Below, piece after piece: positions 25,637 to 54,624 of a DNA stretch of 64,000 nt. Every line of letters starts with the position of its first letter. The first letter of the stretch is position 1. Below the pieces are notes generated by a model. It saw only the letters and a program-made list of their open reading frames with translations. It was not told where the DNA came from and ran no database searches. Made by a program: the position numbers and the translations under genes. The DNA comes from Tenacibaculum sp. MAR_2009_124. GTDB lineage: Bacteria; Bacteroidota; Bacteroidia; Flavobacteriales; Flavobacteriaceae. The stretch lies in assembly GCF_900105455.1 (NCBI RefSeq), contig NZ_FNSF01000005.1:868001-932000 (forward strand). Direction: 5' to 3'.

Positions 25637-25834
25637 ATGAATCGAATAAAGGAAGTATTAAAAGAACAAGGAAGGACTCAAACCTGGCTCTCTGAAAAGG
25701 TTGAAAAAAGTTATGTAATAGTAACAAACTATTGCAATAATAATGCACAACCAAGTATTGAAGTTCTCCGAAAGATTGCAAATATATTGGATGTTGATGT
25801 TAGAATATTATTGCACTCTACAAAAGATAATTGA
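25637..25834 (+). CDS. Cro/C1-type controller protein
   Basis: 65 residues (MNRIKEVLKEQ at the start; an alternative ATG lies three codons earlier). A single helix-turn-helix fills it: QTWLSEKVEKSYVIVTNYC for helices 2-3, then QPSIEVLRKIANILDVDVRIL. Small proteins of this type head many restriction-modification operons in Bacteroidetes and set the timing of methyltransferase and effector expression. The methyltransferase ATG follows its stop by five bases. It is the first gene of a four-gene operon that ends at 30550. Confidence 0.85.
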   Translation: MNRIKEVLKEQGRTQTWLSEKVEKSYVIVTNYCNNNAQPSIEVLRKIANILDVDVRILLHSTKDN

Positions 25835-25839
25835 TAAAT

Positions 25840-27048
25840 ATGGAGAACCAAAAGACATACATTGATTTGTTCTCTGGTTGCGGAGGACTTTCACTTGGAT
25901 TACATAATGCAGGTTGGAAAGGAATTTTTGCTATTGAAAAGAGTGAAGATGCTTTTAAAACATTAGAGCATAATTTAATTAAAAAGAAAAAGCATTTTGA
26001 ATGGCCTAATTGGTTAGGAAAACCAAAACATCACGATATTAATGAAATAATAGAGCATCATTCTAAAAATTTAAAATCTTTAAGAGGCAAAATTGATTTA
26101 GTTGCAGGAGGACCTCCTTGTCAAGGTTTTTCAATGGCAGGCAGAAGGATTGAAAATGATTCAAGAAATGATTTAATCAATTCATACGTGAAATTTATTG
26201 ACTTAGTAAAACCTAAATTAATTTTTTTTGAAAATGTAAAAGGATTTACTCAAGGTTTTAAAAAAAACAACACAAAAGGTGAAGCCTATTCTATTTATGT
26301 CAGAAAAGAACTTGAAAAAGTTGGATACTCTGTAAAAGGTCAATTAATAAACTTTGCAGACTATGGAGTTCCTCAAAAAAGAACAAGATTTATTTTAGTT
26401 GGTATTCAAAATAGCTTTGTTGAAAATACTCCAAACCTTAATGAAGAGACTTTTTTTAAAGAAATTAAAAATAACAAAGAAGCTTTTTTAGTAAATAAAA
26501 AACTTACAATTAATCCTACCTTAGAAAATGCAATTTCAGATTTACTACAATCTAATGGAGTAATTGAGTCTGAAACTCCAAATTTCAAAGCTGGAATTTA
26601 TGGAGAAATAAAATCAGATTATCAAAAATATCTTAGGAAATACAAAAGGCAAGAAAGCAAAGTTGATAGCCATAGATTTGCAAAACATACAGATGTTGTA
26701 AAAAACAGGTTTCAAATAGCTTTGAATGAAAACTTGACAAGTGCAACATATAAAGAACGATTTAACCTAAAAAAGAGTAGCACAAAAATTCTAGACGCAA
26801 ATAAGCCTACTCCTACAATAACAACTTTACCTGATGATTATATACATTATTGCGAACCTAGAATTATGACTGTTCGCGAATATGCTCGTATTCAGTCATT
26901 TCCAGATACTTACCAATTTAAAGGTAAATATACAACTGGTGGTAAAAGAAGAACACAAGAAGTTCCAAGATATTCACAAATTGGAAATGCTATTCCTCCT
27001 CTATTTGGAGAGCAAGCAGGTTTGGTTTTAAAACAACTAATTCAATAA
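25840..27048 (+). CDS. DNA (cytosine-5) methyltransferase
   Basis: A 402-residue C5 methyltransferase with all core motifs. Motif I is DLFSGCGGLSLGLHNAG, motif IV GPPCQGFS with catalytic Cys94, motif VI ENVKG (131-135), motif VIII GVPQKRTRFILVG, and motif X QIGNAIPPLFGEQAG. The insert between VIII and X is the target-recognition region; its site cannot be predicted by eye. No restriction endonuclease gene is next to it. Instead the stop overlaps by one base the start of the dual-GHKL protein. It is unrelated to the shorter phage methyltransferase at 53614 beyond the common fold. Start ATG 25840 is preferred over a TTG at 25831 overlapping the controller stop. Confidence 0.93.
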   Translation: MENQKTYIDLFSGCGGLSLGLHNAGWKGIFAIEKSEDAFKTLEHNLIKKKKHFEWPNWLGKPKHHDINEIIEHHSKNLKSLRGKIDLVAGGPPCQGFSMAGRRIENDSRNDLINSYVKFIDLVKPKLIFFENVKGFTQGFKKNNTKGEAYSIYVRKELEKVGYSVKGQLINFADYGVPQKRTRFILVGIQNSFVENTPNLNEETFFKEIKNNKEAFLVNKKLTINPTLENAISDLLQSNGVIESETPNFKAGIYGEIKSDYQKYLRKYKRQESKVDSHRFAKHTDVVKNRFQIALNENLTSATYKERFNLKKSSTKILDANKPTPTITTLPDDYIHYCEPRIMTVREYARIQSFPDTYQFKGKYTTGGKRRTQEVPRYSQIGNAIPPLFGEQAGLVLKQLIQ

Positions 27049-29639
27049 TGGGAAATGAATTAGAATTTAAAATAAGTACTGGTTTAAAAGATATCATTGG
27101 TAAGGATTTAATTACTGATGAATTTATTGCCGTTTTTGAATTAGTTAAAAATTCTTACGATGCATTTGCTAAAAATGTAATCATTACAATTGAGGATGAT
27201 AAATTAATTATTTCGGATGATGGAAAAGGAATGTCCTTAGATGATTTAAAAAACAAATGGTTATTTGTCGCTTATTCAGCAAAAAAAGATAATTCTGAAG
27301 ACAATAATGATTCTGGCAAAAATGAATCGTATCGTGATATAATTCAAGAAAGAAAACATTATGCTGGTGCAAAAGGTATTGGTAGGTTCTCCAGTGATAG
27401 ATTAGGAAAAGTACTTACCATAAAAACAAAAAAAATTGATTCTTCAAAATTAGAAGAATTAGAAATTGATTGGTCTAAATTTGAAACCAATCAAAAAAAT
27501 ACATTTGAAACTGTAAAAGTTAATCACAATACACTTGATAAAACTGTAAAATTTCCTAAAAATTCTAATTCTGGAACTATCTTAGAAATTTCTAACTTAT
27601 ACAATGTATGGGATAGAACGAGAATATTAGCTTTAAAACACTCTCTTGAAAAACTAATAAACCCTTTTTCTGAAAAAAATGACTTCAATATTGAAATTAT
27701 TTGTAAAAAGGAATTAAGCGAAGACAAAAATGGGGTTTACACAACTGGGAGTAAAGAAATTAAGGGAAAAAAATACTTCAACAGAGATAAAGTAAATGGT
27801 TCTATAAAAAATGCTATCCTTGATATTTTAGAATTAAAGACTTCTCAGATTACATTCAAAATTTCAAAAGGAAAAATAGAAACTAAAATAATCGATAGAG
27901 GAGAGTTAATTTATCACACAAAAGAACCTGCAAAAGAGTTTAAAATCATTAAAAACTTACAAATTGATTTATATTTTTTAAATCGTTCTGCTAAACTCAA
28001 CTTCTCGTTAAAAATGGGAATTCAACCATTACATTTTGGTTCTATATTTCTATTCAAAAATGGTTTTAGAGTACAACCTTTTGGAGAAAAAGGAGACGAT
28101 AGTTGGGGTATAGATTTTAGAGCTCAACAAGGTTATAATAGATTTTTAGGAACTAGAAACTTATTTGGAAGAGTTTCAATTTCTACAAACGACACAGAAC
28201 AATTCAAAGAAGTTTCTAGTAGAGATGGAGGTTTAATAGAAACTCCTGGTTATTATGAATTAATGAATGCTTTTAAATTAGCTCACAGAAGACTGGAAAG
28301 ATATGTTGTTGGAGTACTTTGGGGTGAAGGATTTAAAAGACAAAAATATTTTGGAAACAATACTGATAAAGCAGAACAATATAAGCTACAATTATCAACA
28401 GATAAAGACTCTGAAAACATAGATGTTGCAAAATCTAATTTAGGTAGTAAAATAGATTTTATTCAAATCATTAAAAGCTTAAGCAATAATAAAGATGTTG
28501 AAATTATTGATTTCAATAAGGACTTTATTGATTTAGTAAATGAAAAAATTGATGAATCCCAAATTAAATTCATTTCTGATTTAAAAGACATTGCTAATAA
28601 AACTGATGATTCTAAACTTCAAAATAAAGTTTACGATATTGAGCAAGCTTTCGAAAAGCTAAAACAAGAAAAAGAAAAAGCCGAAAGAAGAGTTACAGAA
28701 GAAGAAAAGAGAAGAAAACAAGCTGAAAAAAAAGCTAATGAGCAAGAGAAAGCAAGGAAAGATGCTGAAAGAAAAGCTTTAAAAGAAGAAGAAAAAAGAA
28801 GAAAAGCAGAACTTAAAGCAGAAACAAAAGAAAAAGAAAGAGCTCAAGCGGAATTAGCTAAAGTAAAAGCTCAGTTGAAAGCTAAGGAAGAAGAGGAAAA
28901 AAGGAAAAAAGAGGAAGTAGCAAGAAAAGAAGCTGAAAAGAGAGAACAAAAAAGGAAGGAACAAATTAGCTTAATAAAATCAGCTGAAACAATAGAATAT
29001 AAAGATTTACGTGACTCCAATCATATAATCGGTGTATACTCTGAAACTATTTCATCAAAAATTTTAAGTCTTAAAAGAAAGCTTGACAAAAATAAGATCC
29101 CAACGAAAACACAGCTAATTGACTTCATAAGTGCAATTAACTTAGCAAATGAAAAAATAGGAACAATTACAAGATTTACTACTAAAGCGAATTATTTAAA
29201 AGCTTCATTACAAACAAAGGAAAATATTGTTTCATTTATAAAAAACTATGTAGAGAAAACTTATACAGTCTTACATAAAATTAATGTGGAATTTATTGAT
29301 TCTGATATTGAATTCATTAAAGAATTTAAACCAATAGAACTAACAGTTGTAATTGATAATATCCTTAATAATTCAAGAAAGAAAAATGCGAAAAAAGCTA
29401 TTTTCTCTTTTTCAATATCAAATAATAATTTGACTGTTTCTATTAAAGATATTGGAGAGCCTTTAAATAAAGATTTAAATAGCAGTATTATTTTTGAAGA
29501 AGGTATAACAACAACAAGAGGTTCTGGTCTTGGCTTAAGTCACGTTAAAAGAATAGTTGAAGAAGAACTAAACGGTAAAATAATTCATAATCCAGAATAT
29601 ACGAATGGATTTGAACTAAAAATCACATTGAATAAATGA
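27048..29639 (+). CDS. dual-GHKL protein: MORC/Hsp90-like ATPase plus histidine-kinase-like module
   Basis: 863 residues with an unusual order of parts. Residues 1-130 are a GHKL ATPase of the MORC/MutL/Hsp90 kind: N-box FELVKNSYDAFA (30-41), ATP-lid start SDDGKGMS (56-63), and GAKGIGRFSSDRLG (107-120). Residues 150-430 hold a transducer-like region (GIDFRAQQGYNRFLGTRN). About 535-640 is a highly charged coiled coil. Residues 650-863 resemble a sensor-kinase core: a helical pair with a candidate phospho-His at 659 (LRDSNHIIGVYSE), N-box VVIDNILNNSRKKN (768-780), KDIGEP, a short F-box IFEEGIT, and RGSGLGLSHVKRIVEE (824-839). Both ATP sites look intact. There is no membrane segment, so it would act in the cytosol. 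It overlaps the receiver gene by ATGA. I read it as sensor and kinase of the operon. Confidence 0.8.
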   Translation: MGNELEFKISTGLKDIIGKDLITDEFIAVFELVKNSYDAFAKNVIITIEDDKLIISDDGKGMSLDDLKNKWLFVAYSAKKDNSEDNNDSGKNESYRDIIQERKHYAGAKGIGRFSSDRLGKVLTIKTKKIDSSKLEELEIDWSKFETNQKNTFETVKVNHNTLDKTVKFPKNSNSGTILEISNLYNVWDRTRILALKHSLEKLINPFSEKNDFNIEIICKKELSEDKNGVYTTGSKEIKGKKYFNRDKVNGSIKNAILDILELKTSQITFKISKGKIETKIIDRGELIYHTKEPAKEFKIIKNLQIDLYFLNRSAKLNFSLKMGIQPLHFGSIFLFKNGFRVQPFGEKGDDSWGIDFRAQQGYNRFLGTRNLFGRVSISTNDTEQFKEVSSRDGGLIETPGYYELMNAFKLAHRRLERYVVGVLWGEGFKRQKYFGNNTDKAEQYKLQLSTDKDSENIDVAKSNLGSKIDFIQIIKSLSNNKDVEIIDFNKDFIDLVNEKIDESQIKFISDLKDIANKTDDSKLQNKVYDIEQAFEKLKQEKEKAERRVTEEEKRRKQAEKKANEQEKARKDAERKALKEEEKRRKAELKAETKEKERAQAELAKVKAQLKAKEEEEKRKKEEVARKEAEKREQKRKEQISLIKSAETIEYKDLRDSNHIIGVYSETISSKILSLKRKLDKNKIPTKTQLIDFISAINLANEKIGTITRFTTKANYLKASLQTKENIVSFIKNYVEKTYTVLHKINVEFIDSDIEFIKEFKPIELTVVIDNILNNSRKKNAKKAIFSFSISNNNLTVSIKDIGEPLNKDLNSSIIFEEGITTTRGSGLGLSHVKRIVEEELNGKIIHNPEYTNGFELKITLNK

Positions 29640-30550
29640 GAATAAGTTATAATATATTATGGGTTGAGGATGACAAGCAATATTATGAAGCAAATCTTGA
29701 ACTAATCGATGATTTTCTAGATGATAATGGTTTTGAAGTAAAATCTAAATTATGTAGAAATTTTGGGGAAGTAGAAGCAGAATATCAGAATAATCATCTA
29801 AAAGAATATGATATAATGTTCATTGATTTCAATTTAGATGATAAAGTTTATGGAAGCGAAATTATTGAGTTTATAAGAAGTCAAGACGACAATTCTATAT
29901 TAACCGATGTAATATTTTATTCTTCAGATATTGAATCTGTTAGAGACAAATTAAAAGAAAATGGGTTTGAAGGAGTATATACAAGTCCAAGAACTGAATT
30001 TATTGGAAAAGCTGAAAAAGTTATTTTAAGTACTATAAAAAAGGTACAAGAAGTAAACCCTATAAGAGGTTTAATAATGGCTGAGACAAGTGACTTAGAC
30101 AATTTAATGCTTGAAATTATAAATAAGATGCTATTAACTGAACATAAAGAAACTTATGAGGATTATATTAAATCGGAAGTTGAAAGCACTATAAAAAAAA
30201 ACACAAAATTAGCCAATGATGAGAACAATAACATTAATGACAAAATAAGTGATTCTAGAATTTTTACTACTTTTCATAAGGCCAAATGTATTAACAAACT
30301 TTACAAACAAACAAAAGCCTCTGAAAACCCGATTGGCAAAGAAAAATTTTTTTCTCGATATGATGAGAGTGTAATTTCTGTTAGAAATAATTTTGCACAC
30401 GTAAAAGAGGAAATTAGAGATGGAGAAAAAGTTTTGATTAGTTATTCTACTGGTAAAGAAATCGTATTTAACGAATCTGAATGTATAAAAATAAGGAAAT
30501 CATTAATTGAATTCAGAAAAGAATTAGAAGAAATCAATAGTAAATTATAG
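29636..30550 (+). CDS. response-regulator receiver fused to a HEPN-like domain
   Basis: 304 residues. The first 125 form a receiver domain: acidic pocket ILWVEDD (8-13), phospho-acceptor Asp64 in DIMFIDFNLDD, and the switch Ser in VIFYSSD (96-97). The usual Lys before Pro is replaced by Ser117 (YTSP). The remaining 180 residues are all-helical and contain VRNNFAHVKEE; R250-N-x3-H255 is the R-x4-6-H motif of HEPN ribonucleases. No DNA-binding output domain is seen. The inference is that phosphorylation by the preceding kinase-like protein switches an RNase or other toxic activity. Last gene of the operon, translationally coupled to the kinase-like gene. Confidence 0.72.
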   Translation: MRISYNILWVEDDKQYYEANLELIDDFLDDNGFEVKSKLCRNFGEVEAEYQNNHLKEYDIMFIDFNLDDKVYGSEIIEFIRSQDDNSILTDVIFYSSDIESVRDKLKENGFEGVYTSPRTEFIGKAEKVILSTIKKVQEVNPIRGLIMAETSDLDNLMLEIINKMLLTEHKETYEDYIKSEVESTIKKNTKLANDENNNINDKISDSRIFTTFHKAKCINKLYKQTKASENPIGKEKFFSRYDESVISVRNNFAHVKEEIRDGEKVLISYSTGKEIVFNESECIKIRKSLIEFRKELEEINSKL

Positions 30551-30610: not shown

Positions 30611-30835
30611 TTACTCTAAATTTAGCAAGCAGTGTCGTTCGTAGATAACATTGCAAAAACTAATAAATATTGAGTAATAATTTTCAAGTTCATTTAGAAC
30701 GGTGGTTAGTATCTTTTTTGGAGGTTTTTTTTGATTAACAAGTAATACCGGCTGATATTCGAGATTAGACAAAATAGACTTATCAATATAACCAGTATTA
30801 AGGCTCTGCGTAAAATCGTGTATTAGATTATTCAT
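30611..30835 (-). pseudogene. truncated DUF3427-type helicase, N-terminal remnant
   Basis: 74 codons start eight bases inside the end of the NUDIX gene. Residues 1-58 (MNNLIHDFTQSLNTGYIDKS through TTVLNELENYYSIFISF) look like the beginning of the PLD-nuclease/DEAD helicase/DUF3427 proteins that often follow a NUDIX gene. After ISF the expected SVAFVT stretch is lost and the frame ends within 15 codons. The remaining thousand or so residues are absent; the methyltransferase operon begins (from the other side) 60 bases beyond. A deletion or insertion seems to have removed the rest. Confidence 0.6.
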
Positions 30836-31223
30836 TTGCCACTAATTTATCTACGATAGGAATATCTGCAGCTGCCCAATCAAGTGGACGAAGCTCGTTT
30901 ATATGTAACCATTTTTGATCAATATGCTCATTAAGTGTTAGTTTTTTTGAGTCGACATGACATAGAAAACTGTGCATTGTTAGTTCGAAATCTGGGTATT
31001 TATGCACAACAGTGAGAAAAAAAGATTTTATTTTTACAGAGATACTCAGTTCTTCTTTTAGTTCACGATTTAAAGCTTCTTTTCTGGTTTCACCTTGTTC
31101 TATTTTTCCTCCAGGAAATTCAAATTTTTCTGAAATATAAAGGAGTTTATTTTTTGGTCTTTGGACGCATAGAACTTGGTCTTCATAAAAGATAATACCT
31201 GCAACTACTTCGACTTTTTTCAT
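30828..31223 (-). CDS. NUDIX hydrolase, MutT-like
   Basis: A 131-residue NUDIX enzyme. The Nudix box is FPGGKIEQGETRKEALNRELKEEL (about residues 36-59), matching GX5EX7REUXEE except that the final GU is SI. Members of this subgroup remove pyrophosphate from 8-oxo-dGTP or other nucleoside triphosphates to keep the pool clean. Its stop overlaps the start of a truncated helicase, as in the NUDIX-helicase pairs of other bacteria. The remaining pair member is broken here. Confidence 0.9.
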   Translation of the reverse strand: MKKVEVVAGIIFYEDQVLCVQRPKNKLLYISEKFEFPGGKIEQGETRKEALNRELKEELSISVKIKSFFLTVVHKYPDFELTMHSFLCHVDSKKLTLNEHIDQKWLHINELRPLDWAAADIPIVDKLVANE

Positions 31224-31418: not shown

Positions 31419-32321
31419 CTATTTATTCTTAAAATAATCCCAAGCTAGTTTACCTATTTCAGCTATAATTTTCTGATTTGTTGTATCAGGCTCTGTTGAA
31501 TTACTGACTAAAACACTTAAATAAAAATGAGAACCATTCGGTAAAAACACAATTCCAATATCATTAACCGCGCCTGTTAAACCTTCTTTATTTTTTCCAG
31601 AATGTCCCGTTTTATGAGCTACAATTGTGTCTTTTGGTAAAAAACCTCGAATACTTTTTTTACCCGTTTGAGTACCTTTTAAAACATCCAGTAAAAAATT
31701 GTAGCTTTTCTTACTTAGAAGATTGTTAGCATTTTTATAGAACAGTTTTAAAGTTTTATTTGCGGCTTTTGCAGTAGTCCAATTTTCAAATTGACGATCC
31801 CATTGTGCTTGCATATTAATTTCGTTGTGAACAATAGCAATATCTTTAATGCCTATTTTATGTAAATAGTTTTCTACTGCTTTTAGCCCTCCAACAAGCT
31901 CGAAAAGTAAATCACAACCTATATTATCACTCCAGGCAACGGTATATTTAATTATTTCGGCTAGTGTTACTTTGGCACCATTGGGATATTTTTTTCGCAA
32001 AGGGCTCCATAAATGATTGTACTTCGCAATAGTTTTTTTGTCAATAGAAATTGATTCGTTTAAATCAAATTTTCCTAAATCAACTTGATGAAGTACTGCT
32101 AAAGCTAAATGGTATTTAAAGACACTTTGCATAGGTAAATGATCATCACCATTAATAGAAACAATATCCTTTGGATGTACTCCTTCAATTGCAACTCCAA
32201 CATGCGCCTTTTTGTTTTTGAGAACTTTATGTATTTGTTGTTTCAAAAGATCAATTGATTGTGCATTGATAGAGTTGAATGTCAATAAGTATAACCATAG
32301 AATAAGAGTTGATTTTCTCAT
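31419..32321 (-). CDS. class A beta-lactamase, subclass A2-like
   Basis: About 300 residues from ATG 32321 (MRKSTLILWLYLLTFNSINA), with a signal peptide cleaved near AQ-S at residue 21, so periplasmic. Active-site motifs are complete: S66-V-F-K69, S131-D-N133 and K237-T-G239; the omega-loop glutamate is probably in FENWTTAKAAN (E179). The pattern resembles the A2 group of Bacteroidetes enzymes (CfxA, CepA, PER, CGA). Homologues hydrolyse penicillins and often cephalosporins; the spectrum here is unknown. The frame is open upstream of 32321, but those residues do not look coding. No mobile element adjoins, so it is probably a resident gene. Confidence 0.9.
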   Translation of the reverse strand: MRKSTLILWLYLLTFNSINAQSIDLLKQQIHKVLKNKKAHVGVAIEGVHPKDIVSINGDDHLPMQSVFKYHLALAVLHQVDLGKFDLNESISIDKKTIAKYNHLWSPLRKKYPNGAKVTLAEIIKYTVAWSDNIGCDLLFELVGGLKAVENYLHKIGIKDIAIVHNEINMQAQWDRQFENWTTAKAANKTLKLFYKNANNLLSKKSYNFLLDVLKGTQTGKKSIRGFLPKDTIVAHKTGHSGKNKEGLTGAVNDIGIVFLPNGSHFYLSVLVSNSTEPDTTNQKIIAEIGKLAWDYFKNK

Positions 32322-32472
32322 TTTAGTAGTGGTAGTATGAATCATACAGTAATTTAGGTGATTATTAATACTGCTAAAATTAAGCAAAAAACGCGAGGTT
32401 CAGAGGTTAATGATTTATATGAAATAAAAAAGTAAATCTAAGGTTGTAGTTATTTTAATGGAATAGAAAGGG

Positions 32473-53600: not shown

Positions 53601-53613
53601 TTAAACCGATAAT

Positions 53614-54624
53614 GTGGATTGTACCAAAAAACATAGAAACGAACAAAGAGTATTATCTTTTTGCTACGGATACGGAGGTCTTGAAAGAGGAGTTTCTAGA
53701 GTTATCCCAATTAAACCAGTCGCTTATGTGGAGATCGAAGCTTTTCAAAACTTCAACCTGGTGGCAGCGATGGAATCGGGTTTGGTGGATAAAGCACCTA
53801 TTTGGACGAATCTTAAAACCTTCAAAGGAAAACCTTTTCATAACAAAGTACACGGAATCATTGGAGGTTATCCGTGCCAAGGAGAAAGCCTTGCTGGTAA
53901 AAGAAAACTATGGAATGACGAACGATTCCTTTGGCCGTATATTGAAAGGGCAATCCATGACGTTAGACCTCTTTGGTGCTTCTTTGAAAACGTCGCCGGA
54001 CACCTCACAGGATCTTTCCCCTACATTCTTGAAAGCTTACGAAATATGGGTTACTCAGTTGAGACAGGAATCTACTCAGCGTCAGAAGTTGGCGCGCCAC
54101 ATAAAAGAGAAAGGGTTTTCATTCTCGCGTTGGATTACTCCTACATCCATGAGTTGCAAAAGAAAAGAAAAGCAAGACTGGGAATGGATGGGGACTTATT
54201 ACAAGACAGCAGAAGGCAAGAAAATTCAATCAGATTTACAGAAGCAAGTACTGAAGTGGTCGACACCAACTACAAGAGACGGAACGGGAACAGATTGTCC
54301 AGCAGACAGGAAAAGGAACTCCCCAGGGCTTCCATGTCAAGTGAATTTATATCCAACTCCACAGGCAAGCGAAACAGAAAAAGCAGCAAAGAATACAAAA
54401 CAGGATTCATTGAGCAAAAGAGCAATCAATGGCCAGCTGGACCAGGAGAAAGGCAATTTGAATGGGAAGAATACAGAACGATTGAACCCGGCATGGGTTG
54501 CACAGTTAATGGGTACAACTTTAGGACAGAGCTTCTACGCCAATATGGTAACGGAGTTGTAGCTCAAACAGCAGAAAAGGCATTCTCAATGCTATTAGAT
54601 AAGCATATTAAAAACATCAAATAA
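53614..54624 (+). CDS. phage C5-cytosine DNA methyltransferase
   Basis: 336 residues from GTG 53614. Motif I is SFCYGYGGLERGV (15-27), motif IV GGYPCQGES with catalytic Cys88, motif VI FFENVAGH (124-130), motif VIII SEVGAPHKRERVFILA, and motif X RQYGNGVVAQTAEKAF. The stretch EWEEYRTIEPGMGCTVNGYN before motif X is typical of phage methyltransferases. It probably protects phage DNA from host restriction. An ATG two bases upstream (53612) opens another frame that stays open for 316 codons over the same DNA; see the overlapping entry. Downstream come very small genes. Confidence 0.88.
   Translation: MDCTKKHRNEQRVLSFCYGYGGLERGVSRVIPIKPVAYVEIEAFQNFNLVAAMESGLVDKAPIWTNLKTFKGKPFHNKVHGIIGGYPCQGESLAGKRKLWNDERFLWPYIERAIHDVRPLWCFFENVAGHLTGSFPYILESLRNMGYSVETGIYSASEVGAPHKRERVFILALDYSYIHELQKKRKARLGMDGDLLQDSRRQENSIRFTEASTEVVDTNYKRRNGNRLSSRQEKELPRASMSSEFISNSTGKRNRKSSKEYKTGFIEQKSNQWPAGPGERQFEWEEYRTIEPGMGCTVNGYNFRTELLRQYGNGVVAQTAEKAFSMLLDKHIKNIK
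53957..54562 (+). CDS. overprinted reading frame inside the methyltransferase gene
   Basis: In the frame two bases ahead of the methyltransferase, codons are open from 53612 to 54562. From ATG 53957 the product reads MTLDLFGASLKTSPDTSQ and then LARHIKEKGFSFSRWITPTS, with repeated TPT motifs (KWSTPTTRDGTG, LYPTPQASETE) and the end ERLNPAWVAQLMGTTLGQSF. From memory, proteins with SLKTS, repeated (W/Y)PTPxxxD and LNPxWVExLMG accompany phage cytosine methyltransferases. If so, about 600 bases encode two conserved proteins. The start could equally be 53612 or 53915. Function unknown. Confidence 0.5.
   Translation: MTLDLFGASLKTSPDTSQDLSPTFLKAYEIWVTQLRQESTQRQKLARHIKEKGFSFSRWITPTSMSCKRKEKQDWEWMGTYYKTAEGKKIQSDLQKQVLKWSTPTTRDGTGTDCPADRKRNSPGLPCQVNLYPTPQASETEKAAKNTKQDSLSKRAINGQLDQEKGNLNGKNTERLNPAWVAQLMGTTLGQSFYANMVTEL

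What the first reader, a model, noticed from the sequence alone, without database searches (positions are those of the whole stretch)
29636..30550. Receiver domain fused to a HEPN-type R-x4-H motif
VRNNFAH at residues 249-255 is the R-N-x3-H pattern of HEPN RNases, in a helical output domain with no DNA-binding motif. A phospho-controlled RNase would be a new way of switching an abortive effector. The receiver lacks the usual Lys (Ser117), so its signalling may be modified.
Basis: partly seen in the sequence, partly recalled or inferred. Interest (0 to 1): 0.8.

Follow-up and report, generated by a model that had tools for sequence, protein, structure and literature searches.

The report
Phosphorelay-controlled RNase beside a DNA methylase
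A bacterial three-gene unit appears to wire a DNA-marking (restriction-modification) enzyme to a predicted RNA-cutting protein through a kinase and phosphate relay, and relatives swap the RNA cutter for a caspase-like protease, which suggests a modular immune alarm.

Summary
In detail: window 29636-30550 (+) encodes a 304-aa protein with an atypical receiver domain (AlphaFold2 pLDDT 90.7; receiver fold Z 16.5) and a helical C-terminal domain with R250-N-N-F-A-H255. In 53 aligned sequences (window plus 52 relatives) R250, H255 and phosphoacceptor Asp64 are invariant; the usual receiver Lys is absent in all. The only Pfam families matched by more than two of the 53 C-terminal domains are HEPN families, each weakly, so HEPN is well supported but not proved by structure. 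The gene ends an operon: C5 methylase, double-GHKL histidine kinase, REC-HEPN. Of 80 related kinase loci, 79 have a receiver gene at most 15 nt downstream (the other contig ends) and 79 a C5-methylase match within 6 kb. Receivers: 52 REC-HEPN (one more is cut), 24 of another type beside a caspase/CHAT-fold gene, 2 stand-alone. The kinase's sensor half has changed effector type repeatedly (13 changes on its tree), its catalytic half once. A related kinase-receiver pair with R-M was described in 2021; I did not find the HEPN output, the CHAT alternative or the cassette swapping in print. Best reading: an R-M-linked phosphorelay that triggers an RNase. No experiment has been done.

The parts
29636..30550 (+). 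REC-HEPN gene, 304 aa (P0001): atypical response regulator with predicted RNase output
   Evidence: ORF and translation; aligned with 52 full-length relatives; AlphaFold2 pLDDT 90.7, pTM 0.85
29645..30046 (+). receiver domain, residues 4-137
   Evidence: predicted fold; PDB match 4mld Z 16.5, 127 aligned; Response_reg at E up to 1 in 39 of 53 members, best 3.6e-11, not in the window protein itself
29825..29827 (+). phosphoacceptor Asp64 codon
   Evidence: D in 53 of 53
30053..30544 (+). HEPN-like helical output domain, residues 140-303
   Evidence: helices 140-165, 171-188, 200-205, 212-226, 238-253, 280-303; HEPN Pfam families are the only ones matched by more than two of 53 members
30383..30400 (+). 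R250-N-N-F-A-H255 motif, predicted half of an RNase active site
   Evidence: R 53/53, N 52/53, H 53/53
27048..29639 (+). 863-aa sensor histidine kinase with two GHKL ATPase domains; overlaps the REC-HEPN gene by 4 nt
   Evidence: HATPase_c_3 4.4e-17 (27-159), HATPase_c 3.4e-14 (762-861)
27126..27524 (+). N-terminal MutL/BbrUII-like GHKL ATPase (residues 27-159), proposed sensor
   Evidence: BbrUII 8.8e-20, mutL 1.3e-6, both under their curated cut-offs; E31, N35, D57, G59, G61 each 80 of 80
29022..29024 (+). predicted phosphorylated His659 of the kinase
   Evidence: H in 80 of 80
29331..29630 (+). C-terminal kinase ATPase domain (residues 762-861)
   Evidence: N775, G825, G827, G829 each 80 of 80
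28871..28871 (.). end of 92% DNA identity with Tenacibaculum sp. M341 (L022), inside the coiled coil (about residue 608): proposed recombination junction between sensor half and kinase-receiver-effector cassette
25831..27048 (+). C5 cytosine DNA methyltransferase, 405 aa
   Evidence: PF00145 3e-58; a match to its profile within 6 kb in 79 of 80 kinase loci
25637..25834 (+). 65-aa ORF just upstream, resembles a small helix-turn-helix controller (label recalled, not searched)
   Evidence: translation

Best explanation
The three genes form a restriction-modification-linked phosphorelay. The methyltransferase marks self DNA (shown: family only). The N-terminal MutL/paraMORC-like ATPase of the kinase senses a DNA state, such as unmethylated or invading DNA (inferred from family and from methylase linkage). 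The kinase dimer then autophosphorylates His659 and passes the phosphate to Asp64 of the adjacent receiver (inferred from conserved residues, gene overlap and co-inheritance of kinase core with receiver type). Phosphorylation rearranges or dimerises the protein so that two HEPN domains form a composite R-x4-H RNase site, and RNA cleavage stops growth or phage production (inferred). In sister systems a similar sensor half drives a second receiver type that sits beside a caspase/CHAT-fold protein, so the effector arm is an exchangeable cassette (shown by gene order and trees).
For: R250, H255 and D64 invariant in 53 of 53. The four most frequent Pfam matches of the 53 isolated C-terminal domains are HEPN: RiboL-PSP 7, MAE_28990 5, Swt1 5, Abi_2 4 members (Abi_2 called HEPN after the Abi2/SWT1 passage); of the other 80 families three are hit by two members and the rest by one (25 of 84 shown, sorted by members). 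PADLOC gives CARF-HEPN 3, Csx1 2 and Csm6 1. hhalign places RNNFAH on RNICAH of Abi_2, E 0.0037, against 0.46 for ferritin and 0.24 for the class-2 receivers. Kinase His659 80/80. Receiver gene within 15 nt in 79 of 80 kinase loci, 30 with a 4-nt overlap. CHAT-profile match in 24 of 24 class-2 loci and 0 of 53 HEPN-class loci; the L022 model matches SAVED-CHAT 8tl0 Z 12.8, MALT1 10.5, gingipain 10.4, separase 10.3; His and Cys conserved in the 19 aligned. The HEPN/CHAT label needs 13 changes on the tree of kinase residues 1-500 (shuffled mean about 21) and 1 on residues 640-863. Window against L022: methylase 97%, kinase residues 1-500 92-100% by 50-residue block, residues 601-863 16-40%, receiver 22%.
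Against: No experiment. The window protein alone matches no HEPN or receiver profile. Profile matches in other members are weak (best HEPN E 2.8e-4 in Pfam; LRRFIP, unrelated, reaches 4.2e-5 in one member; PADLOC also gives unrelated hits such as PDC-M01B 2.4e-4). hhalign probabilities are low (14% and 9%), and the RiboL-PSP match covers only the first helix. No HEPN structure is among the 50 rows shown in each fold search, which the receiver part dominates; PorX ranks first in Foldseek but superposes poorly (TM 0.31, rmsd 17.6). The receiver lacks the conserved Lys. No endonuclease was found in the window with my HNH and Vsr profiles. Whether phosphate turns the output on or off is unknown.
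Confidence: 0.62

Rival explanations
1. Same parts, opposite sign: the kinase keeps the receiver phosphorylated and the HEPN RNase off; losing the signal (for example loss or inhibition of the methylase-kinase complex) releases the RNase, like a toxin-antitoxin module that guards the R-M locus.
For: HEPN toxins are commonly held off by a neighbour (recalled; the abstract of PMC3710099, links HEPN to TA and R-M systems). Tight kinase-effector linkage fits an antitoxin-like partner.
Against: Inducible phosphorelay is the usual logic of such pairs (recalled); the CHAT-linked sister systems fit an activated cascade. Nothing here decides it.
Confidence: 0.2
2. The protein is a regulator of the R-M genes and not an RNase: the helical domain binds RNA, DNA or protein, and the R-x4-H motif is structural.
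For: Bellieny-Rabelo et al. 2021 (PMC8011034, parts 1-5 of 7 read) speculate that related kinase/receiver pairs control R-M systems. Some HEPN domains are non-catalytic RNA binders (abstract).
Against: Both catalytic-type residues kept in 53 of 53 divergent sequences; in sister loci the arm is replaced by a receiver beside a protease-fold protein; no known DNA-binding domain among the Pfam matches shown (lists capped at 25 families).
Confidence: 0.12
3. The C-terminal domain belongs to another helical family, such as the helical domain of PorX-type regulators, and the RNxxAH likeness to HEPN is convergence.
For: PorX is the best Foldseek match (E 3.6e-5); no HEPN structure among the rows shown.
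Against: The PorX match does not superpose as a whole (rmsd 17.6); receiver residues carry the matches. HEPN families lead the profile matches.
Confidence: 0.06

Closest known systems
Response_reg_2 / HEF_HK two-component-like pairs with R-M (Bellieny-Rabelo et al. 2021, PMC8011034; parts 1-5 of 7 read)
   Same: Double-GHKL soluble kinase plus adjacent receiver protein, next to C5 methylase, HNH_2 and Vsr genes; paraMORC relationship.
   Different: HEF_HK matches 0 of 7 kinases scanned here at E up to 1; Response_reg_2 matches 5 of 53 members weakly (best 1.7e-4) and not the window protein. Four ORFs at Response_reg_2 hits are 528-575 aa, with no RNxxAH seen by eye. HEPN, RNase, caspase and abortive have no occurrence in that paper's main text.
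Detocs (recalled only; primary paper not held)
   Same: Phosphorelay defence with a histidine kinase and a receiver-effector fusion.
   Different: As recalled, a separate phosphate-buffering receiver, a different sensor and a nucleosidase effector; no methylase link. Not compared by sequence.
MORC/paraMORC ATPases in R-M operons (Iyer et al. 2008, PMC2292703) and paraMORC-HEPN (Ymh) fusions (Anantharaman et al. 2013, PMC3710099)
   Same: MutL-like GHKL ATPase with cytosine methylases and Vsr nucleases; HEPN fused to paraMORC within R-M loci (abstracts and passages).
   Different: There the HEPN is fused directly to the ATPase. In the 2008 paper 'receiver', 'CheY' and 'two-component' do not occur and 'histidine kinase' only spells out GHKL. 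In the 2013 paper 'receiver' occurs once, for a membrane domain fused to a receiver in place of a HEPN.
BREX-related DUF499 systems with HEPN (PMC12839542) and CoCoNuTs with REC domains or two-component genes (PMC11090510)
   Same: R-M-like operons with a backup HEPN, or with two-component genes (passages).
   Different: Different ATPases and architecture; no REC-HEPN fusion in the passages seen.

Membership tests
HEPN superfamily | R-x4-6-H motif with a polar residue after R | tested here: met
   window RNNFAH; R 53/53, N 52/53, H 53/53
HEPN superfamily | sequence match to known HEPN profiles | tested here: inconclusive
   no match for the window protein; HEPN families lead among members (7, 5, 5, 4 of 53), best E 2.8e-4; hhalign E 0.0019 and 0.0037 with low probability
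HEPN superfamily | four-helix bundle superposing on known HEPN structures | tested here: inconclusive
   helical, mostly good pLDDT; fold searches filled by the receiver part
HEPN superfamily | dimeric composite active site and metal-independent RNase activity | not testable with these tools
   no complex modelling or assay
Receiver domain | (beta-alpha)5 receiver fold | tested here: met
   4mld Z 16.5, rmsd 1.9, 127 aligned
Receiver domain | phosphoacceptor Asp, acidic pair, Ser/Thr switch | tested here: met
   window E11, D12, D64, S96; in 53: D64 53, position 11 E/D 53, position 12 D 38 and N 15, position 96 S/T 53
Receiver domain | conserved Lys at the end of strand 5 (usual, recalled) | tested here: not met
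   0 of 53; hence called atypical; Arg119 in 43 of 53
Histidine kinase | phosphorylated His, N box, G1 and G2 boxes | tested here: met
   H659 80/80, N775 80/80, D801 78/80, G803 79/80, G825/G827/G829 80/80
Response_reg_2 / HEF_HK pair (PF19192/PF19191) | match to the two published profiles | tested here: not met
   no match at E up to 1 for window receiver and kinase
Type II restriction-modification | C5 methylase | tested here: met
   PF00145 3e-58
Type II restriction-modification | cognate endonuclease in the locus | tested here: inconclusive
   my HNH and Vsr profiles find none in the window; other nuclease types not searched; HNH near 9 and Vsr near 12 of 80 related loci
Detocs | DtcA/DtcB/DtcC set with nucleosidase effector (recalled) | not tested
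   paper not held
Clan CD / CHAT peptidase (the sister-locus protein, L022:11262-11924) | caspase-like fold with His-Cys dyad | tested here: met
   8tl0 SAVED-CHAT Z 12.8, 167 aligned, rmsd 3.5, then MALT1, gingipain, separase, caspases; H62 and C101 in 19 of 19 aligned and by eye in 4 of the 5 others, the fifth being cut by its contig end. Against: Foldseek E not significant, Pfam matches weak

The most novel reading that the evidence does not exclude
A modular immune phosphorelay in bacteria and archaea: paraMORC-type DNA-sensing histidine kinases, tied to a self-marking cytosine methylase, fire interchangeable death cassettes (phospho-switched HEPN RNase, or receiver plus caspase/CHAT protease), with recombination joining different sensor halves to a matched kinase core-receiver-effector block.
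Probability: 0.55. Interest if true: 0.87.

Novelty: new variant of a known kind. Interest (0 to 1): 0.76.

Why it matters
If true, two-component signalling, usually thought of as gene regulation, is a widespread control layer between DNA self-marking and abortive effectors, with a sensor that is rewired by recombination. It gives a direct assay for what paraMORC-type ATPases sense, because the read-out (phosphate on Asp64, RNA or protein cleavage) is biochemically simple. The RNase and caspase-like versions on similar sensors also allow clean effector-swap tests.

Tried and rejected
Single-protein scans of the window protein (Pfam, PADLOC, NCBIfam, PHROGs, PDB phmmer) gave nothing significant. 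Fold searches of the full-length model (PDB Foldseek, PDB VIA, viral; 50 rows shown each) are dominated by the receiver; no HEPN entry is among the rows shown, which says nothing either way. A PDB profile search with the C-terminal alignment found nothing (best E 0.32). The PDB profile search with the CHAT-like alignment returned cytochrome P450s at E 0.0025, which I reject as spurious in view of the caspase-fold model. The class-2 receivers were checked late: Response_reg matches 7 of 20 at E up to 1 (best 4.7e-5), and 13 of 20 do not match it; two Asp are invariant in the 20. PF18737 gave 2 of 148 genomes and was not aligned. Plasmids and phages: tblastn of the window protein, no match; of the Acinetobacter and Vibrio relatives in plasmids, no match; the window kinase matched 3 plasmid records over its N-terminal half only. 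One relative's kinase DNA found no match in E. coli genomes. Among 97 close relatives of the window genome, only the window's own genome matched the protein; among 395 genomes of the phylum 11 did, own included. Three weak hits (L009-L011), over the receiver only, were dropped. L051 (contig ends in the kinase) is left out of the kinase alignment and trees; L091 (receiver cut before the HEPN part, counted in the HEPN class by receiver type) is left out of the trees. Five of 24 CHAT-like genes and four of 24 class-2 receivers were not put into the alignments A5 and A6. Three of the 80 kinase loci (L042, L088, L100) are the same loci as seeds of the query. Profiles for methylase, HNH, Vsr and CHAT were built here from few sequences and iterated on the same loci, so counts with them are not independent annotations. 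Trees are FastTree only, without bootstrap; L027 has a long branch in the C-terminal tree.
Full report
WHAT IS THERE. It overlaps by 4 nt the gene before it (27048-29639), an 863-aa protein with an N-terminal MutL/BbrUII-like GHKL domain and a C-terminal histidine-kinase ATPase domain. That gene in turn starts at the last base of a C5 cytosine methyltransferase ORF (25831-27048). My HNH, Vsr and CHAT profiles find nothing else of the system in the 64 kb.

IS THE MOTIF MORE THAN CHANCE. A bare R-x4-H occurs in 14.8% of shuffles of this protein, so the pattern alone is weak; RNxxAH occurs in 0.03%. Conservation decides it. I aligned the protein with 52 full-length relatives taken from kinase loci. 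R250 and H255 are in 53 of 53, N251 in 52 (Ile in one), A254 in 49 with Gly in 4; Asp64 53 of 53; the receiver Lys 0 of 53, with Arg119 in 43. Mean column identity is only 27%.

FOLD. AlphaFold2 with that alignment gives pLDDT 90.7 and pTM 0.85: receiver at 4-137 and helices 140-165, 171-188, 200-205, 212-226, 238-253 and 280-303. R250 sits in the last turn of helix 238-253 and H255 just after it. PDB comparison confirms the receiver (4mld Z 16.5, 127 aligned, rmsd 1.9) but says little about the C-terminal domain. PorX leads Foldseek (E 3.6e-5) with poor whole-length superposition (TM 0.31, rmsd 17.6).

HEPN EVIDENCE. Scanning the 53 isolated C-terminal domains against Pfam, the four families matched by more than two members are HEPN: RiboL-PSP 7, MAE_28990 5, Swt1 5, and Abi_2 4 (Abi2/SWT1 counted as HEPN in a passage of PMC3710099). 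Single members also hit DUF4145 (HEPN-like by recall), LA2681 and Apea. The call reports 84 families sorted by members and shows 25; three others are hit by two members. The best HEPN E is 2.8e-4; one unrelated family (LRRFIP) scores 4.2e-5 in one member, and the window domain itself matches no HEPN family. PADLOC gives CARF-HEPN 3 (1.5e-4), Csx1 2 and Csm6 1, alongside unrelated hits such as PDC-M01B (2.4e-4) and Cas9. Profile-profile comparison aligns RNNFAH with RNICAH of Abi_2 (E 0.0037, probability 9%) and the first helix with RiboL-PSP (E 0.0019, 14%); controls are ferritin 0.46 and class-2 receivers 0.24. I take HEPN as likely (about 0.9), not proved.

THE KINASE LOCI. One scan of the species genomes with a kinase alignment kept 80 loci, the best of 276 confirmed. 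The seven seed kinases had been found beside REC-HEPN relatives, and three of the 80 loci (L042, L088, L100) are seed loci again, so the sample leans to kinases like the window's; but the search patterns lie in the N-terminal ATPase, and the receiver gene played no part in the search. Record titles name Bacteroidota and many others (Proteobacteria, Sulfurimonas, Akkermansiaceae, Planctomycetota, a Villigracilaceae, an Eremiobacteraeota bacterium) and two archaea (Methanimicrococcus, L033 and L034). In 79 of 80 a receiver gene starts between 50 nt before and 15 nt after the kinase stop, 30 with the 4-nt overlap; in the 80th (L051) the contig ends inside the kinase. A methylase-profile match lies within 6 kb in 79 of 80, directly upstream on the same strand in 64, and on the opposite strand in 9 HEPN-class loci; HNH genes lie near 9 and Vsr near 12 of 80. 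In 80 aligned kinases (79 loci plus the window) His659, N35, N775 and G825/G827/G829 are invariant; D801 is 78/80 and G803 79/80. Of 80 viral-contig loci, the 16 best matched (L153-L168) were examined: 13 have a REC-HEPN-class receiver, 12 of them with RN..[AG]H, 2 the CHAT type, 1 no receiver match. One of them (L155) has the same length and match place as the bacterial contig L069, so these may be prophages or misclassified bacterial contigs.

TWO EFFECTOR ARMS. By receiver type, 53 of 80 loci are HEPN class (52 full length; L091 cut before the HEPN part), 24 carry a shorter receiver (225-245 aa), 2 a stand-alone receiver (L085, L101), and 1 is unknown. The shorter class is receiver-like by Response_reg in 7 of 20 scanned (best 4.7e-5) and by two invariant Asp. 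All 24 short-receiver loci and 0 of 53 HEPN-class loci have a neighbouring match to the CHAT-like profile; a GHG-like His and a Cys are conserved in the 19 aligned and seen by eye in 4 of the other 5, the fifth (L063) being cut. The L022 model (pLDDT 93.5) matches SAVED-CHAT 8tl0 at Z 12.8 over 167 residues, then MALT1, gingipain, separase, legumain and caspases at about 9-10.5; Foldseek alone was not significant, and Pfam gave only weak Peptidase_C50 and C25 hits.

CASSETTE SWAPPING. The window and Tenacibaculum sp. M341 (L022) share 97% of the methylase and 92-100% by 50-residue block over kinase residues 1-500, then 80% and 56% in the next two blocks, 16-40% over residues 601-863, and 22% of the receiver. 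DNA identity of 92.3% runs from 25771 to 28871 and stops in the coiled coil. Against Flavivirga (L052, HEPN type) there is no such break (78% over the kinase, 56% over the receiver). Trees of 79 kinases: with residues 1-500 the HEPN/CHAT label needs 13 changes (at least 9 forced by supported branches for the CHAT group; shuffled mean 20.8, so the label is still clustered); with residues 640-863 it needs 1, supported at 100; whole length 4 for the CHAT group. So kinase core, receiver and effector move as one block while the sensor half has been exchanged repeatedly. That is what specific phosphotransfer between kinase and receiver would demand, and it is the strongest evidence that the pair signals.

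MECHANISM. Shown: parts, order, conserved catalytic residues, co-inheritance. Inferred: DNA-state sensing by the N-terminal ATPase, phosphotransfer, RNase activation by dimerisation, dormancy or abortive outcome. The opposite sign (phosphate keeps the RNase off) is a real rival.

PRIOR WORK. Bellieny-Rabelo et al. 2021 (PMC8011034; parts 1-5 of 7 read) described a related kinase/receiver pair beside C5 methylases, HNH_2 and Vsr, and suggested that it controls R-M. HEPN, RNase, caspase and abortive do not occur in its main text. Their profiles do not detect the window pair, and four ORFs at hits of their receiver profile are 528-575 aa without RNxxAH. Anantharaman 2013 (abstract and passages) reports paraMORC-HEPN fusions in R-M loci; its one use of 'receiver' concerns another architecture. 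Iyer 2008 (abstract and passages) does not use 'receiver'. DefensePredictor 2026 (PMC13092281; passages and figure legends) lists HATPase and REC among abbreviations for predicted systems in Fig. 6F; the figure was not seen, so a prediction of something similar cannot be excluded. Ten searches of an open-access library showed no paper on receiver-HEPN or receiver plus CHAT with a methylase in the listings and passages I saw; one search listed 15 of 236 papers, and subscription journals are mostly not held.

VERDICT. Observation confirmed; interpretation partly supported and strengthened by context. New variant of a known kind: R-M-linked two-component modules are known, phospho-switched effectors are known (Detocs, recalled), but the HEPN and CHAT output arms and the recombining cassette design appear undescribed as far as I could search.

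Noticed in passing
L022 6793-11927 (Tenacibaculum sp. M341): Near-identical methylase and sensor half to the window but a different kinase core, receiver and a CHAT-fold gene: a natural cassette swap within what is probably one genus.
   Followed up: yes
L012 4347-7169; L085 7665-10316: The kinase carries an extra N-terminal region like the N-terminal (DNA-binding type) part of the HNH enzymes of sister loci, as if the sensor had taken over the endonuclease's DNA-binding part (similarity seen by eye).
   Followed up: no
L152 (Deinococcus gobiensis plasmid P2) 3544-8511: A related kinase lies between an Eco57I-type methylase and a 648-nt hypothetical gene plus an HNH gene, so the sensor may also pair with adenine-type methylases.
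   Followed up: no
L085 10325-10729, L101 10261-10635: Stand-alone receivers of 134 and 124 aa after the kinase, with no fused effector; a separate effector was not identified.
   Followed up: no
window 30828-31223 (-): NUDIX/MutT-like gene next to the operon matches the PADLOC candidate PDC-S07 (1.4e-46); probably a housekeeping MutT.
   Followed up: no
window 53605-54621 (+): Second, weaker match to the C5 methylase profile (2.7e-20).
   Followed up: no
window 31419-32387 (-): Protein that looks like a class A beta-lactamase (recalled look of the sequence, not searched).
   Followed up: no
BFVD A0A8S5LY51 (Myoviridae sp. ctrnx29): 298-aa viral response regulator is the top viral fold match, 314 alignment columns (E 6.4e-4, but TM 0.31, rmsd 18.3); may be a phage-borne relative.
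   Followed up: no
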